From Natrinema salinisoli (GTDB lineage: Archaea > Halobacteriota > Halobacteria > Halobacteriales > Natrialbaceae), in NCBI RefSeq assembly GCF_020405205.1, contig NZ_CP084469.1, forward strand, positions 3,534,001 through 3,598,000: a DNA stretch of 64,000 bases, given 5' to 3'. Positions 18,564-27,886 of this stretch are shown one piece after another (position 1 is the first letter of the stretch; every line of letters starts with the position of its first letter). The notes under the pieces were generated by a model, which was given only the letters and a program-made list of their open reading frames with translations, did not search any database and was not told the DNA's origin. Made by a program: the position numbers and the translations under genes.

Positions 18564-21050
18564 ATGAGTCACGAATCCCGGCCGCCCACGAATCGGCCTG
18601 TCCCCGCGTCGGACTCCGGCAATTCGAGCGAGACCTCCACCTCGAGTCGCCACACTGACGCCGCCGCCACGTGTGACCTCTGTGACCTCCCGACCCCCGA
18701 CGACCCCATCACTGCGGCCGACGCGGACGGGTCGTTCTGCTGTCGGGGCTGTCTCGAGGTCTCCCGAACGCTCGACCGGACCGACGCACCCGACGTCCCC
18801 GACGAATCGGCGGTGCGCTCGCGGGTCGGGCAGGACGAGATGGACGACCGCGACCTCGCGGATCTCGAGGGCGAGGACGCGTTCCTCGCGGTCGAGGGAA
18901 TGCACTGCTCGACCTGTGAGGCCTTCCTCGAGGCGACCGCCGAGGGCGAAGACGGCGTCCTCGGTGCGACGGCCAGCTACGCGACGGACACGATCCGAAT
19001 CGTCTACGACTCCGACCGGGTCGCGGCCGAGGACCTCCCGGACCTCGTCTCCGGGTACGGCTACACCGCGGCCGATCGGGCCGCCGATGACGAGACGGAC
19101 GCGGACGACGGCCTCGTTTCGCTCCTGCTGGGCGGGTTCTTCGGCATGATGGTCATGGTGTGGTACGTGCTGTTCCTGTACCCGACCTACTTCGGCTTCG
19201 AGCCGGTGGCCGACTTCGGCGGCTACGACGGTCTCTTCCTCGCCGCGAACATCTGGTTGCTGGCCTCGTTCATCCTGTTTTATACCGGCTACCCGATCCT
19301 CCGCGGTGCGTACGTCAGTCTCAGAGCGGGCCGGCCGAACATGGATTTACTCGTCGCGACGGCAGCGCTGGGGTCGTACACCTACAGCGTAATCGCGATG
19401 CTGCTCGGGGAACTCCACCTCTACTTCGACGTCACCGTCGCGATCGTCCTCGTCGTGACCGCCGGGACCCACTACGAGCAGGCGGTCAAGCGCCGCGCAA
19501 CTGGCTTGCTCTCCGAGCTGACCGAGCGACAGGTCGACGAGGCCCGCCTCGAGAGCGGTGAGACGGTTCCGCTCGAGGCCGTCGAACCCGGCGACCGACT
19601 CCTCGTGCGGCCCGGCGAGCGGGTCCCCCTCGACGGCGAGGTGGTCGAGGGAACCGCCGCGATCGACGAGTCGCTGGTCACGGGCGAGTCCCTGCCCGCC
19701 CGGAAGGAACCGGGCGATTTCGTCCGCGGCGGGACCGTCGTAACCGACGCCCCGATCGTTCTGTCGGTGGGCGACGAGGCCGAGAGCACCCTCGACCGGC
19801 TCGTCTCCTTGCTCTGGTCGATCCAGAGCGCACGGCCCGGCGTCCAGCGGCTCGCGGACAAGCTCGCGACGGTCTTCGTCCCGCTGGTCGTCGCCCTCGC
19901 CGTCGGGACCGCCGCCGTTCTCCTCCTGACTGGCTCGAGCGCGTCGGATGCGCTGCTGATCGGACTCACGGTCGTGATCGTCTCCTGTCCGTGTGCGCTC
20001 GGACTCGCGACGCCGCTCGCCATCGCCGCGGGCGTTCAGGCCGCGGCGGAGCGCGGAATCGTCGTCGCGACGGAGACGATCTTCGAAGACGCGCCCAGTA
20101 TCGACGTCGTGGTGCTCGACAAGACGGGAACCCTCACGACCGGGACGATGGCGGTCGAAGCCGTCCACACCGTCGACAGTGACGACGGCGACGAAAGCGA
20201 TTCGGATGCCGACGAGGTGCTCCGGCGTGCCGGTACGGTCGAGGCGCTCTCCGAACACCCGATCGCGGCGGCCGTGGCAGACGCTGCGGCGGCGCCCCCG
20301 ACCGCGGACGGCACACCCGCACGCGCCGTCGAGGGGTTCGAGCGAACGGACCGCGGCGTCAGCGGACTCGTCGACGGCGAACGGGTCACCGTCGGCCACC
20401 CCGAGTACCTCCGCGAGCAGGGACACGCAGTTCCCGAGGCCCTCGAGTCGCGGATCGACGAGACTCGAACCGCCGGTCGTGTTCCCGTCGCCGTCGGCTG
20501 GGACGGGCGAGCCCGCGGCGTGATCACCGTCGGCGATTCGCCACGCGGGGAGCTCGAGGACGCACTCGAGACGCCCTCGACGGGTCGCGACGTCGTCGTC
20601 CTCACCGGCGACGAGGGCCGGGCGGCCGACGAGTTCCGGGAACTGGACGGCGTCGACGAGGTCTTCGCCGGCGTCCCACCGGAAGCGAAGGCGGAGACCG
20701 TCGATCGGCTGCGGGCTCGCGGGACGGTCGCGATGGTCGGCGACGGGAGCAACGACGCGCCCGCGCTGGCCGCCGCCGACGTCGGCATCGCGATGGGTGG
20801 CGGGACGAAACTCGCGACCGACGCGGCCGACGCGGTGATCGTCGACGACGACCTCACGGCCGTCGCAGACGCCTTCGACATCGCCACGAGTACCCATCGG
20901 CGGATCCGACAGAACCTCGGCTGGGCCTTCGCGTACAACGCGGTCGCGATCCCCCTCGCGGTCGCCGGCCTGTTGAACCCGCTGTTCGCGGCCGTTGCGA
21001 TGGCCGCGAGCAGTGCGCTCGTCGTCTGCAACTCGGCGCGGTCGCTCTGA
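18564..21050 (+). CDS. Copper-type heavy-metal P-type ATPase (CcoI/CopA-like)
   Basis: An 828-residue P1B-ATPase. The N-terminus has an extra Cys-rich metal domain (Cys37, Cys40, Cys59, Cys60, Cys63), as in FixI/CcoI proteins, then an HMA domain with GMHCSTC at about 113-118. The membrane part carries CPC at 475-477, VTGES is the actuator loop, DKTGT at 519-523 has the phosphorylated Asp, and GDGSNDAPA closes the P domain. CPC with the FixI-type N-terminus and adjacent SafE and oxidase genes points to copper export for oxidase metallation, not simple detoxification. The metal specificity is inferred. Confidence 0.93.
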   Translation: MSHESRPPTNRPVPASDSGNSSETSTSSRHTDAAATCDLCDLPTPDDPITAADADGSFCCRGCLEVSRTLDRTDAPDVPDESAVRSRVGQDEMDDRDLADLEGEDAFLAVEGMHCSTCEAFLEATAEGEDGVLGATASYATDTIRIVYDSDRVAAEDLPDLVSGYGYTAADRAADDETDADDGLVSLLLGGFFGMMVMVWYVLFLYPTYFGFEPVADFGGYDGLFLAANIWLLASFILFYTGYPILRGAYVSLRAGRPNMDLLVATAALGSYTYSVIAMLLGELHLYFDVTVAIVLVVTAGTHYEQAVKRRATGLLSELTERQVDEARLESGETVPLEAVEPGDRLLVRPGERVPLDGEVVEGTAAIDESLVTGESLPARKEPGDFVRGGTVVTDAPIVLSVGDEAESTLDRLVSLLWSIQSARPGVQRLADKLATVFVPLVVALAVGTAAVLLLTGSSASDALLIGLTVVIVSCPCALGLATPLAIAAGVQAAAERGIVVATETIFEDAPSIDVVVLDKTGTLTTGTMAVEAVHTVDSDDGDESDSDADEVLRRAGTVEALSEHPIAAAVADAAAAPPTADGTPARAVEGFERTDRGVSGLVDGERVTVGHPEYLREQGHAVPEALESRIDETRTAGRVPVAVGWDGRARGVITVGDSPRGELEDALETPSTGRDVVVLTGDEGRAADEFRELDGVDEVFAGVPPEAKAETVDRLRARGTVAMVGDGSNDAPALAAADVGIAMGGGTKLATDAADAVIVDDDLTAVADAFDIATSTHRRIRQNLGWAFAYNAVAIPLAVAGLLNPLFAAVAMAASSALVVCNSARSL

Positions 21051-21074: not shown

Positions 21075-21326
21075 CTATTCGGTCGCGTCCGTTCTGTCCC
21101 CGTCGTCAGTCGTCACGACTCGCTCGACCGCTCGGCGTTCCCCGTCTTCGTAGACGTACGTCGTTCCCTCGTCTTCGTCGCTCGTCTGTCGATGACTGCC
21201 GTCACAGAACGGGAACGACTCCGAAAGGCCGCACTGACAGACCGCGATATCTCCCTTTTCGTCGTCGATATCCGACGGGTCGAGTTTGCGCGGTCCGTCT
21301 TCCTCGAGTTCGACGAGTCGCGTCAT
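21075..21326 (-). CDS. CDGSH iron-sulfur protein
   Basis: An 83-residue soluble protein with one CDGSH domain. Cys30, Cys32, Cys41 and His45 (CQCGLSESFPFCDGSH) are the three-Cys-one-His ligands of a [2Fe-2S] cluster. Such proteins act in redox signalling or Fe-S transfer; no partner is evident here. The C-terminal 35 residues are acidic and disordered in appearance. The frame is open further upstream, but the ATG at 21326 starts the conserved sequence. It is convergent with the copper ATPase. Confidence 0.9.
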   Translation of the reverse strand: MTRLVELEEDGPRKLDPSDIDDEKGDIAVCQCGLSESFPFCDGSHRQTSDEDEGTTYVYEDGERRAVERVVTTDDGDRTDATE

Positions 21327-21471
21327 CGGATAGGGGTTTGGAGGCCGGCCGCAAAACCCTTCGCTCGAGGGGCAGACCGGATCGAACCGGACGGCAAATT
21401 GCGGGGATAGCTGGCACGTCCCACGCCTTTCGGGAACGGCAAGGTTCTTACTACAGGTATTGAATATCGAA

Positions 21472-21777
21472 GTGAGCACAGCTATGTGGTTCTACGCCGC
21501 GGCCATACCGACCGCGATCGCGCTCGCGGTCGTCAAAACGCTCGTCCTCGTCGTCGGCGGCGTCATCACGTTCTTCGCGTACAAGGCCTACCGCCGGACG
21601 CGCCAGCCCGCGCTGGGCTATCTCTCGCTGGGTTTCGGGCTCGTCACGCTCGGACTGGTCTTCGCAGGGATGCTGTACGAATACCTCGGCATGGATCTGA
21701 TGACCGGCATTCTGCTCGAGAGCCTGCTGGTTCTCGCGGGATTTCTCGTGATCGCGTACTCCTTGTACGTCACGTGA
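21472..21777 (+). CDS. DUF7521-like three-helix membrane protein
   Basis: A membrane protein of about 101 residues with three hydrophobic helices (about 8-32, 45-65 and 75-98) separated by a basic loop, ITFFAYKAYRRTRQPALGY. This pattern is typical of a small haloarchaeal family found beside transcriptional regulators. The GTG at 21472 is favoured because a TATA-like TTCTTACTA around 21444-21452 is centred about 25-27 bases upstream; the ATG at 21484 is the alternative. No function is known. Confidence 0.75.
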   Translation: MSTAMWFYAAAIPTAIALAVVKTLVLVVGGVITFFAYKAYRRTRQPALGYLSLGFGLVTLGLVFAGMLYEYLGMDLMTGILLESLLVLAGFLVIAYSLYVT

Positions 21778-23386: not shown

Positions 23387-23869
23387 TCAGTCGTCGATGG
23401 CGACCTGTTCCGTGTCCGTCTCCGACTCGATGGTCCCGTCGGTCTCGTCGGCTGTCTCGGCCCCATCTACGGTCTCGCCGGCATCCCCGACGGACGATCG
23501 TTTCGGAATCTCGACGTTCAGCGTTCCAGTTTCGCTGAGCGTCGCCGTTCCGGCGTCCGGATCGACGACGGCGTCGGTCGGTAACTCGGCCTCGCCGTTC
23601 AGCGACATCCCGCGGCCGGGGAAGCGCATCTCGTAGCCCTCGTGAAACTGCCGGAACCGGTCGATGCGAATCCTGACGTTGCCCTCGAGGTAGCGGACCT
23701 GGACGTCGTCCGGTTCGGCTCCCGGTGCGTCGAAGACGACGCGATAGGAGGTGTCGTTTTCGAGGATGTCGACGGGAAGCGATCGGTAGTTCTGGACGCG
23801 GCCGTTCGCGCGGCCGACCTGACGATAGAGGGCGTTACCAACCGATTTACCGAGGTCTGAGAGGCTCAC
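23387..23869 (-). CDS. Hsp20/alpha-crystallin-family small heat-shock protein
   Basis: A 160-residue protein with an alpha-crystallin domain at about 30-128. The strands are visible as LPVDILENDTSYRVVFDAPGA-like order, VQVRYLEGNVRIRI and a later TATLSETGTLNVEIPK, which carries the conserved LxVEIPK ending. Such proteins bind unfolding proteins as ATP-independent chaperones. The C-terminal 35 residues are an acidic Asp/Glu/Thr tail, an adaptation to salt, and the classical IxI tail motif is only weakly present (EQVAIDD). Monocistronic and convergent with the oxidoreductase. Confidence 0.85.
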   Translation of the reverse strand: MSLSDLGKSVGNALYRQVGRANGRVQNYRSLPVDILENDTSYRVVFDAPGAEPDDVQVRYLEGNVRIRIDRFRQFHEGYEMRFPGRGMSLNGEAELPTDAVVDPDAGTATLSETGTLNVEIPKRSSVGDAGETVDGAETADETDGTIESETDTEQVAIDD

Positions 23870-24345: not shown

Positions 24346-25806
24346 CTACCGCTGCTCGACGGTTCGCTCGATACCGGGTTCGAGACGGGTCATGACCGCC
24401 GATCCGTCGCGAGTTCGAACCACGAGCCCGCTTTCTTCGAGCGCCGAGAGGTGGTGAGTTACCGTACTCGGATGCCGATCGAGTTCGTCAGCGAGCGTCG
24501 TCGTCTGTGTGGCGCCGCGATCAGCCAGCGTCTCGAGGAGCCGCCTGGTTGCGGGCTTCTCGAGCGCGATCCGGAGTGCGATATCGACGTCCTCGATCGT
24601 ATCGCCGCGGTAGTAACAGCGATTGCCGCGAATTTTCTTCGAGCTGATCAGGTTTTCCTCGTCGAGAATCCTGAGGTGGTGTCGGATCGTCGACAGCGAG
24701 GCGTCGGTCGCGTCCGCGAGTTCGGAGAGGTGTATCCCGGGGTCGGTCCCGATTTTGTGGTAGATCTCCCGACGGGATTCGTGTGCGAGCGGATCGGAAT
24801 CGTCGAACCGACTGTACTGGAACAGCGTGCCGAAGTATCGCCACTGATCCGTGCCCGATTCCTCGAACGCCGCCGTCGTCATCCGAATCGTCCCCTGCAG
24901 AGACGACCACTGACCGACGATAAGCGACGAGAGTCCGACCGTCGAACTGTTTGTCAGTGCCGTTGAGAAGAGAGCCACGAACGCGATACTGATAGAGTGT
25001 CCCCACTGCGACGGCCCGTCCGTCGAGTCTTTACCGGCAGTCGAACCGGTTTCGTTGTCGGGGCTCGTATCATCAGATCCGTTCTCGCTCGTCCGGGCCG
25101 CTCCGTCGTCGTCTGAGATCGATCCGATCCCAGTGCTTGAGATACCCGACCCGAGGCCATTGGCTGAATCAGCAGAGTAGTTCGAATCGTTGAACTCGTC
25201 CGGTTGCTCGGGTTTGCCGGGTTTATCGGGTTTGTCTGACTTCCCTGGTTTATCGGGTTTGCCAGGCTTGTCGGGTTTACCAGGTTTGTCGGGTTTGCCG
25301 GGCTTGTCGGGTTTACCAGGTTTATCGGGTTTACCGGGTTTGTCTGGCTTCCCTGGTTTATCGGGTTTATCGGGTTTACCGGGCTTATCGGGTTTACCAG
25401 GTTTGTCGGGTTTGCCGGGCTTGTCGGGTTTACCGGGCTTATCGGGTTTGCCAGGCTTATCGGGTTTACCAGGTTTGTCGGGTTTGCCAGGCTTATCGGG
25501 TTTACCAGGTTTGTCGGGTTTACCGGGCTTATCGGGTTTGCCAGGCTTGTCGGGTTTACCAGGCTTATCGGGTTTACCGGGCTTATCGGGTTTGCCAGGC
25601 TTGTCGGGTTTACCAGGTTTGTCGGGTTTGCCGGGCTTGTTCTGAATCGAGAACGGTTGATGTGTCTCGTCCGCCTCAGCAGTCAGCGCCTCACCGTTGG
25701 TCTCGGCGGAGACGGTTGCCGTCGCTCCTCCGATGAGAACCGTCGCGAGGAGTATCACGACGATGGTCGTACACAGCCGCACTCGAGTCTCCGTCCTCCG
25801 GCTCAT
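24346..25806 (-). CDS. Membrane-tethered winged-helix regulator with PGKPDK repeat stalk
   Basis: A 486-residue protein with an unusual order of parts. Residues 1-35 are a signal peptide (basic start, hydrophobic core, SAE end). Residues 57 to about 201 are some 24 copies of PGKPDK. A Ser/Asp-rich linker follows to about 265, then one hydrophobic helix at about 270-295. The rest is cytoplasmic: a winged helix at about 338-400 (IHLSELADATDASLSTIRHHLRIL) and a second at about 418-470 (TTTLADELDRHPSTVTHHLSALE). The two helices with STIRHH and STVTHH are ArsR-like recognition helices. A likely reading is a one-component sensor that couples an external, rod-like Lys-rich stalk to gene control. The target genes and signal are unknown; no operon partner is present. 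Confidence 0.85.
   Translation of the reverse strand: MSRRTETRVRLCTTIVVILLATVLIGGATATVSAETNGEALTAEADETHQPFSIQNKPGKPDKPGKPDKPGKPDKPGKPDKPGKPDKPGKPDKPGKPDKPGKPDKPGKPDKPGKPDKPGKPDKPGKPDKPGKPDKPGKPDKPGKPDKPDKPGKPDKPGKPDKPGKPDKPGKPDKPGKPDKPGKPDKPGKSDKPDKPGKPEQPDEFNDSNYSADSANGLGSGISSTGIGSISDDDGAARTSENGSDDTSPDNETGSTAGKDSTDGPSQWGHSISIAFVALFSTALTNSSTVGLSSLIVGQWSSLQGTIRMTTAAFEESGTDQWRYFGTLFQYSRFDDSDPLAHESRREIYHKIGTDPGIHLSELADATDASLSTIRHHLRILDEENLISSKKIRGNRCYYRGDTIEDVDIALRIALEKPATRRLLETLADRGATQTTTLADELDRHPSTVTHHLSALEESGLVVRTRDGSAVMTRLEPGIERTVEQR
25204..25641 (-). repeat. 18-base tandem repeat encoding PGKPDK
   Basis: About 24 head-to-tail units of 18 bases, varying mostly at third codon positions (for example GGT or GGC, AAA or AAG). 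Two places break the register by nine bases, giving PDKPDK, one near 25366 and one near the distal end with a KSDK variant. The third-position variation shows the array is old and under protein-level selection rather than a fresh duplication. Confidence 0.95.
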
Positions 25807-26158
25807 ATTCCCTTTGTTATGCTACTGGTCGGTCATCGTCTCCAGCCGGCTTGGCCTGACGGAACCGATGGCTCAGGATGGATGGGTCGTGCCTCTCGTC
25901 GACCGTCACACTTTCATCTGTCACGAGTATCAAATATCATCTCTTCAAACATCATTAAATTAATGAATTCTCTCCAATCTGATTCCTGTTGATTCGGTTC
26001 AGTAGACCTCGATGGAGAAGTCGGAGATATCGAGGAGGCTAATGGAAGCGAGTGATCCATGGCGGACTACCGCATCCGCCATCTCGAAACGCGCACACTC
26101 GAGGGGCGACCGACGGCGTGTAGTTACCGTTTTACCACTCGAGGCGCTATCGGGAGCC
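25807..26158. other. Intergenic region with divergent promoters
   Basis: A 352-base gap between divergent genes without a supportable ORF. It is clearly more A/T-rich than its surroundings, with a palindromic CATTAAATTAATG near 25952-25964. The TATA-like GTTTTACC at 26129-26136 is about 27 bases before the radical SAM ATG at 26159. The stretch must also hold the promoter of the membrane-tethered regulator. Confidence 0.5.
26129..26136 (+). promoter_or_regulatory. TATA-like box for the radical SAM gene
   Basis: GTTTTACC centred about 27 bases before the ATG at 26159. It supports this start over the longer open frame that begins at 26012. Confidence 0.5.
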
Positions 26159-27886
26159 ATGACTGACCCCGAGACGCTGTCGGTGACGATCGTCGACGGC
26201 TACGTCGACGAGCCCGCACACTTCGGGGTGCCGCCGTACATCTCGACGTACCCCCGGTACGCAGCAGGCGCGCTCGTGGACGCGGGCGTTCCGCGCGAGC
26301 AGATTACGTACCACACGATCGACCGACTTCGCGACGAACCCGACTACTGGCAGGACGTCGACGAGGCGGATCTCCTGATCTACCTCGGCGGAATGACCGT
26401 TCCCGGAAAGTACGTCGGCGGTACGCCGGCCGAACCCGACGAAGTCCGAAAGCTCGCCTGGACCGCGAACGGCACCAGCCTGATGGGCGGCCCGGTCAAG
26501 TTCGGCGTCGGGGACGAAAACGCCGGCGCGACCGAGACCGAACGCCAGGATCTGGATTTCGATTTCGTCGCCAAGGGCGACGTCGAGGCGGCCGTCTTCG
26601 ACCTCGTCGAGAGCGGCCTCGAGGGCTTCAACAACCGAATGCGCGACATCGACGAGGTGTCGCGGTGGGCTCAGGACGGTGCGTTCATCGTCGAGCAACA
26701 TCCCAATCACCCGGAGCACCTCATCGCGGAACTCGAGACCTCCCGCGGCTGTGCGTATCGGTGTTCGTTCTGCACGGAACCGCTCTACGGCAACCCCTCG
26801 TTCCGGCCGCCGCCGACGGTCGTCGGCGAAGTCGACGCGCTCTCCGATTTCGGCGTCAAACACTTCCGAATCGGCCGGCAGGCCGACATCCTCGCGTACG
26901 GCGGTGACGGCGAAGCACCCAATCCGGACGCACTTCGACAGCTCTACAGCGGGATCCGCGAGGTCGCGCCCGACCTCGAGACGCTCCACCTGGACAACAT
27001 GAATCCCATCACGATCGTGAACTGGCCCGAGCAGAGCCGGGAGGGGATCCGGATCATCGCCGAGCACAACACGCCCGGCGATACGGCCGCGTTCGGCCTC
27101 GAGTCGGCCGATCCGGTCGTCCAGGAGGAGAACAACTTGAACGTCAGCGCCGAGGAGTGTTTCGAGGCGGTCCGAATTGTGAATGAAGAAGCAGGGTGGC
27201 GGCCCGGGGAAGACCCCGCGGACGCGCCCACCTTCGGCGAGGATGCGCCGCGACGGCTGCCAAAGCTCCTCCCCGGAATCAACCTCCTGCACGGACTCAA
27301 GGGCGAACGCGAGGAGACCTACGAGCGCAACCGCGAGTTCCTCCAGCGGGTCTACGACGAGGGCTACATGCTCCGGCGGATCAACATCCGGCAGGTGATG
27401 GCCTTCGACGGCACCGACATGAGCGAGACGGGGGCCGAGATCGCGAACGAACACAAACAGCTGTTCAAACGCTACAAGAAGCAGGTCCGCGAGGAGATCG
27501 ACAATCCGATGCTCGAGCGCGTCGCACCGCCCGGTACCGTCCTCCCGGACGTCCACCTCGAGTACCACCAGGACGGCAAGACCTTCGGCCGCCAGCTGGG
27601 TACCTATCCCCTGCTGGTCGGTATCCCCGGCGAGCGCCAACTCGGCCGAACGATCGACGTCGCCGTCGTCGATCACGGCTACCGCTCGGTGACGGGCGTC
27701 CCCTACCCGCTCGATCTCAACGCGGCCTCGATGAACGAACTCACCGCGATTCCCGGCATCGGCGACAGCACCGCCGGTGACATCGTCGTCAACCGCCCCT
27801 ACGAGTCGATCGCCGACGCCGATCTCGGCACGGAGTTCGACCTCTCTCGGTTCGTCACGACGCGGCCGCTCGAGCTCGCGGACTGA
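26159..27886 (+). CDS. Radical SAM protein with C-terminal helix-hairpin-helix
   Basis: A 575-residue radical SAM enzyme. SRGCAYRCSFC has Cys198, Cys202 and Cys205 for the [4Fe-4S] cluster that cleaves S-adenosylmethionine. The N-terminal 180 residues resemble a cobalamin-binding-like Rossmann domain, without a clear DxHxxG motif. The C-terminal part has a strand-rich TRAM-like section (about 480-530), then LNAASMNELTAIPGIGDSTA, a ComEA-type helix-hairpin-helix. This archaeal family (COG1031-like) is conserved but its reaction is unknown. The nucleic-acid-binding end suggests an RNA or DNA target. It is monocistronic. Confidence 0.88.
   Translation: MTDPETLSVTIVDGYVDEPAHFGVPPYISTYPRYAAGALVDAGVPREQITYHTIDRLRDEPDYWQDVDEADLLIYLGGMTVPGKYVGGTPAEPDEVRKLAWTANGTSLMGGPVKFGVGDENAGATETERQDLDFDFVAKGDVEAAVFDLVESGLEGFNNRMRDIDEVSRWAQDGAFIVEQHPNHPEHLIAELETSRGCAYRCSFCTEPLYGNPSFRPPPTVVGEVDALSDFGVKHFRIGRQADILAYGGDGEAPNPDALRQLYSGIREVAPDLETLHLDNMNPITIVNWPEQSREGIRIIAEHNTPGDTAAFGLESADPVVQEENNLNVSAEECFEAVRIVNEEAGWRPGEDPADAPTFGEDAPRRLPKLLPGINLLHGLKGEREETYERNREFLQRVYDEGYMLRRINIRQVMAFDGTDMSETGAEIANEHKQLFKRYKKQVREEIDNPMLERVAPPGTVLPDVHLEYHQDGKTFGRQLGTYPLLVGIPGERQLGRTIDVAVVDHGYRSVTGVPYPLDLNAASMNELTAIPGIGDSTAGDIVVNRPYESIADADLGTEFDLSRFVTTRPLELAD

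What the first reader, a model, noticed from the sequence alone, without database searches (positions are those of the whole stretch)
24346..25806. Membrane-tethered regulator with a collagen-like PGKPDK stalk
One protein combines a signal peptide, about 145 residues of PGKPDK repeats, a single membrane helix and two winged helices with near-identical recognition helices. This looks like a one-component transmembrane sensor in which an external rigid, Lys/Pro-rich rod is coupled to DNA binding on the inside. Winged-helix proteins with a membrane anchor are known in haloarchaea, but this stalk and the two-HTH arrangement are not a family I can name. The stalk may sense the S-layer, polyanions or mechanical state of the envelope.
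Basis: partly seen in the sequence, partly recalled or inferred. Interest (0 to 1): 0.78.

Follow-up and report, generated by a model that had tools for sequence, protein, structure and literature searches.

The report
Stalked membrane-tethered winged-helix gene regulator
A salt-loving archaeon carries a gene regulator that appears to be anchored in its membrane with a long repetitive stalk outside the cell; it belongs to a so far undescribed family whose stalks change fast, and in this species and one sister species an ancestrally acidic stalk has become lysine-rich.

Summary
The 486-aa ORF (24346-25806, minus strand) is real. It has a signal peptide, 48 K-P-x tripeptides (mostly KPG-KPD), a sequon-bearing linker, a marginal hydrophobic segment (about 270-298) and two ArsR-type winged helices. 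It is one member of a haloarchaeal family marked by a YSR[YF]DD[ST]DP signature before the winged helices (64 of 391 genomes, 24 of 86 genera). The same genome holds a paralog with a different stalk. The conserved unit is hydrophobic segment + juxtamembrane + tandem winged helices; the stalk is hypervariable and net acidic in every other stalked member read. The Lys-Pro stalk occurs only here and in Natrinema salsiterrestre, nested among relatives with DDPDDP or other Asp-rich stalks. Flanking charge and sequon enrichment favour stalk outside, winged helices inside. But the membrane helix is weak, AlphaFold did not build it, and some short relatives lack it. Best reading: a membrane-tethered one-component regulator with a disordered, probably glycosylated, rapidly evolving spacer ectodomain, analogous to the DUF7345-TM-DUF7343 proteins of the same genome. 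New variant of a known kind.

The parts
24346..25806 (-). complete gene, 486 aa
   Evidence: the ORF listing and translation; orthologs
25705..25806 (-). signal-peptide-like N terminus, residues 1-34
   Evidence: KD peak 2.3 at residues 11-29; VSA|E cleavage site by eye; similar N termini in Natrinema orthologs
25207..25638 (-). stalk: 48 K-P-x tripeptides, residues 57-200, net charge +23
25015..25206 (-). acidic Ser/Gly linker, residues 201-264, with N-x-S/T sequons at 206, 209, 242, 251
24913..24999 (-). marginally hydrophobic segment, residues 270-298, presumed membrane span
   Evidence: KD 1.4-1.5; position conserved across the family; not built as a helix by AlphaFold
24784..24912 (-). 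juxtamembrane segment ending in the family signature YSRFDDSDP, residues 299-341
   Evidence: invariant columns in a 60-sequence alignment; motif scan of 391 genomes
24607..24783 (-). winged helix 1, residues 342-400 (PF24266 HTH_HVO_0163_N)
   Evidence: Pfam 45.9 bits, cut-off 31; AlphaFold pLDDT mostly above 85
24379..24570 (-). winged helix 2, residues 413-476, ArsR/SmtB type
   Evidence: HTH_20 60.2 bits and NCBIfam HTH_metalloreg 79.8 bits; Foldseek to CzrA/SmtB/PagR, TMt up to 0.8
26012..27886 (+). divergently transcribed radical SAM gene with C-terminal helix-hairpin-helix; neighbour in all nine clade A loci compared
23387..23869 (-). Hsp20-type gene downstream, also conserved next to clade A members

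Best explanation
A membrane-tethered one-component transcription regulator. The signal peptide exports the stalk. A marginal hydrophobic segment stops transfer and leaves the tandem ArsR-type winged helices in the cytoplasm, where they bind DNA. The stalk is a disordered or polyproline-II-like, probably glycosylated spacer that reaches into or through the S-layer; its length and low complexity matter more than its sequence or charge. The signal most likely passes through the weak, small-residue-rich membrane segment and the conserved juxtamembrane region, by a change in dimerisation or by membrane cleavage that frees the winged helices. Shown by computation: family architecture, conservation pattern, charge asymmetry, sequon enrichment, one switch of the stalk to Lys-Pro. 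Inferred: topology, DNA binding, signal, release.
For: Tandem winged helices over Pfam and NCBIfam cut-offs, AlphaFold pLDDT mostly above 85 there. Invariant columns lie in both recognition helices and in the juxtamembrane YSxxDDxDP. Signal peptide - low-complexity stalk - hydrophobic segment - two HTH is seen in the paralog L004 and most relatives. Net charge averages -4.5 in the 30 residues before the segment and +2.7 after it. Sequons: 317 observed against 127 expected in ectodomains, 16 against 23 in the HTH part. The genome has at least five DUF7345-TM-DUF7343 proteins with the same general plan.
Against: AlphaFold builds no helix at 270-298 (pLDDT about 50; about 30, as strands). Estimated insertion energy is about +1.8 on average over the family, weaker than the DUF7343 proteins' spans (-1.6 to +0.6; rough scale). 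In this protein the charge after the segment is -1, against -5 before. Short relatives (L067, L072, L077; apparently L113, L123, L127) have an exported-looking N terminus but no clear second span, hard to square with cytoplasmic HTHs. No target gene or signal is known.
Confidence: 0.62

Rival explanations
1. A latent transcription factor released by regulated intramembrane proteolysis: the weak, small-residue-rich span is the substrate of a rhomboid or other membrane protease, and cleavage frees the tandem winged helices. (A special case of the best explanation.)
For: The span is conserved as marginally hydrophobic and rich in Ala/Gly/Ser/Thr, with an N-x-S in its middle in most of clade A. 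Four rhomboid-family genes are in the genome. Rhomboids affect motility and cell-surface traits in Haloferax volcanii (PMC11985538).
Against: No cleavage site or haloarchaeal precedent was found; the passages read name no transcription factor as a substrate.
Confidence: 0.25
2. One reading: the Lys/Pro-rich rod is the sensor and binds the acidic S-layer or polyanions, or reports on envelope mechanics.
For: The rod has net charge +23 and is held at protein level.
Against: Natrinema orthologs with 57-67% identical C-terminal halves carry stalks of opposite charge (K/R 1-7 against D/E 47-126), and clade B has Thr/Glu/Asp-rich stalks. The Lys-Pro stalk is a single derived state in two sister species.
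Confidence: 0.08
3. The winged helices are outside: the hydrophobic segment does not span the membrane and the protein is an exported or surface-held DNA-binding protein.
For: Weak segment, no AlphaFold helix; short relatives with an exported-looking N terminus and no second span.
Against: Positive-inside charge asymmetry over the family; no sequon enrichment in the HTH part against a 2.5-fold excess in the ectodomain.
Confidence: 0.08

Closest known systems
DUF7345-TM-DUF7343 haloarchaeal proteins (PF24036/PF24034)
   Same: Signal peptide, ectodomain, single span, C-terminal winged helix; at least five in this genome
   Different: Folded DUF7345 ectodomain, one winged helix after an acidic linker, strong membrane helix; neither domain is found in this protein
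HVO_0163-type tandem winged-helix proteins (PF24266)
   Same: First winged helix scores over the PF24266 cut-off; two winged helices in tandem, as in the paralogs L001 and L002
   Different: L001 and L002 are about 210 aa, without stalk or clear membrane span
ArnR/ArnR1 of Sulfolobus acidocaldarius (PMC6396743)
   Same: Archaeal membrane-bound one-component regulators with an HTH
   Different: N-terminal HTH, putative HAMP, sensing domain and two C-terminal membrane spans; opposite order, no exported stalk
ToxR/CadC-type transmembrane regulators (PMC5430869; details from general knowledge)
   Same: DNA-binding domain held at the membrane with an extracytoplasmic part
   Different: N-terminal OmpR-type winged helix and folded C-terminal sensor; reversed order

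Membership tests
PF24266 HTH_HVO_0163_N | Domain score at or over the Pfam cut-off | tested here: met
   45.9 bits, cut-off 31, residues 342-400
ArsR/SmtB winged helix (superfamily level) | Score over the NCBIfam subfamily cut-off and ArsR-like fold | tested here: met
   HTH_metalloreg 79.8 bits, cut-off 55; CzrA, SmtB, PagR by Foldseek, TMt up to 0.8
ArsR/SmtB metal sensors | Paired thiolate metal ligands in the HTH part | tested here: not met
   Only one Cys (397) lies in the HTH part (sequence); other ligand types not examined
DUF7345/DUF7343 membrane regulators | DUF7345 ectodomain and DUF7343 winged helix | tested here: not met
   Neither is among the 25 best Pfam matches, and own-genome searches for both families do not return this locus
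DUF7345/DUF7343 membrane regulators | Layout: signal peptide - ectodomain - one span - winged helix | tested here: inconclusive
   Order of elements present; membrane span marginal
ArnR-type regulators | N-terminal HTH and two C-terminal spans | tested here: not met
   HTHs are C-terminal and nothing hydrophobic follows them
Collagen-like proteins | Gly at every third residue | tested here: not met
   Alternating KPG and KPD; Gly only every sixth residue
One-component transmembrane regulator (functional class) | DNA binding by the C-terminal half in cells | not testable with these tools
   Needs EMSA or ChIP-seq; only fold and conserved recognition helices are shown

The most novel reading that the evidence does not exclude
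The family has mixed or switchable topology: in short members, and perhaps conditionally in long ones, the tandem winged helices are exported and act outside the cell, with the marginal hydrophobic segment deciding between membrane insertion and export.
Probability: 0.07. Interest if true: 0.8.

Novelty: new variant of a known kind. Interest (0 to 1): 0.45.

Why it matters
If right, haloarchaea hold a widespread class of membrane-tethered tandem winged-helix regulators whose exposed stalk is free to change sequence and even charge while the membrane and DNA-binding parts stay fixed. That is a natural swap experiment (Lys-Pro against Asp-Pro stalks on orthologous regulators) for asking what a low-complexity ectodomain does, and it adds candidates for trans-membrane gene control in archaea, where few membrane-bound regulators have been studied.

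Tried and rejected
Collagen-like stalk: rejected, Gly only every sixth residue. Repeat as artefact or antisense gene: the antisense LSGLPG frame is also open and conserved, so codon variation alone does not decide, but only the sense frame joins the conserved domains. Neighbourhood as a clue to the target: clade A lies beside a radical SAM and an Hsp20 gene, clade B beside mutS; whole blocks are syntenic, so this does not point to a target. Upstream palindrome CATTAAATTAATG: shared by some orthologs but may only be promoter elements; not claimed. Second AlphaFold job on clade A alone: too shallow to be useful. Literature: no paper with PGKPDK or DUF7343; the only paper with HVO_0163 is an acetylome study that I did not open. 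CsmR (PMC13286277) turned out to be a small 13-kDa protein, not pursued.

Full report
Observation. The minus-strand ORF at 24346-25806 encodes 486 residues. The N terminus is signal-peptide-like (KD peak 2.3 at residues 11-29). Residues 57-200 are 48 K-P-x tripeptides: 23 KPG, 23 KPD, one KSD, one KPE. Within the KPG and KPD classes every nucleotide difference lies at a third codon position. That points to selection on the protein, with the caveat that the antisense LSGLPG frame would also be kept. The repeat carries net charge +23, the whole ectodomain about +6.

Domains. Pfam places HTH_HVO_0163_N at 342-400 and an ArsR-type HTH at about 417-470, both over cut-off; NCBIfam gives HTH_metalloreg 79.8 bits against 55. 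AlphaFold on a 60-sequence alignment builds both winged helices with pLDDT mostly above 85, and Foldseek matches CzrA, SmtB and PagR. The recognition helices share 8 of 18 residues.

Family. The same genome holds a paralog, L004, with the same plan and a Thr/Asp-rich stalk. Matches at E 1e-12 come from 34 of 61 related genomes, some of them short homologs without stalk, and 44 loci with named organisms were fetched. A DNA pattern for the YSR[YF]DD[ST]DP signature (slightly degenerate) finds 64 of 391 genomes of the class, 24 of 86 genera, and no hit with the reversed control. Most relatives read have signal peptide, long low-complexity stalk, hydrophobic segment and two winged helices.

Stalk evolution. 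Stalk K/R counts are 0-24, always below D/E, in the other stalked members measured, and 42-50 only in the window protein and N. salsiterrestre. Clade A orthologs have DDPDDP or SDPSDTSDSPDD-like stalks, including that of Halobiforma haloterrestris. In the tree the Lys-Pro pair (100/100) is nested among these (99/88 for the seven-row group that holds it), so the acidic stalk is most likely ancestral and the switch happened once. The Lys-Pro pattern is found in no other of 61 genomes and at no other place in these two.

Topology. Around the hydrophobic segment, mean net charge is -4.5 in the 30 residues before and +2.7 after, over about 70 rows that include some duplicate loci. Ectodomains have 317 N-x-S/T sequons against 127 expected by shuffling (highest shuffle 149); the HTH part has 16 against 23. 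Repeats and relatedness inflate the first figure. Both favour stalk outside, HTH inside. Against this: the segment is marginal, AlphaFold does not build it, this protein's own post-segment charge is -1, and some short relatives lack it.

Known proteins of similar plan. The genome has DUF7345-TM-DUF7343 proteins with a folded ectodomain and one winged helix; this protein is not a member of that family. ArnR/ArnR1 are archaeal membrane-bound regulators with the opposite order.

Mechanism. A membrane-tethered one-component regulator with a disordered, probably glycosylated spacer is the best reading (0.62). Release by membrane proteolysis is possible: four rhomboid-family genes are present, but the passages read name no transcription factor as a substrate. 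A sensing role for the Lys-Pro rod itself is disfavoured by the charge of the orthologous stalks.

Limits. Signal peptide and membrane span were judged by hydropathy in scripts, not by a dedicated predictor. Gene starts of relatives were chosen by rule. There are no expression, binding or localisation data.

Noticed in passing
L067, L072, L077, L113, L123, L127: Short family members with a signal-peptide-like N terminus but no clear second span before the winged helices; their topology is unexplained.
   Followed up: partly
L051: Clade B member (Natronococcus pandeyae) with several hundred residues of TTDTVDETTDE-like repeats as stalk.
   Followed up: no
L002 (G000:C1:3633378-3633590): Own-genome tandem winged-helix paralog with a short twin-arginine-like leader (LRRFAALGAASPLVG).
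   Followed up: no
window 25190-25645 (+): Antisense open frame LSGLPG over the repeat, likely an artefact of the repeat composition.
   Followed up: partly
window 21075-21479 (-): Small protein with a CDGSH-like motif (PFCDGSH), next to an apparent heavy-metal P-type ATPase at 18564-21050; read by eye only.
   Followed up: no
L083: The clade B paralog lies beside mutS; a NucS gene and a CHY zinc-finger gene are nearby.
   Followed up: partly
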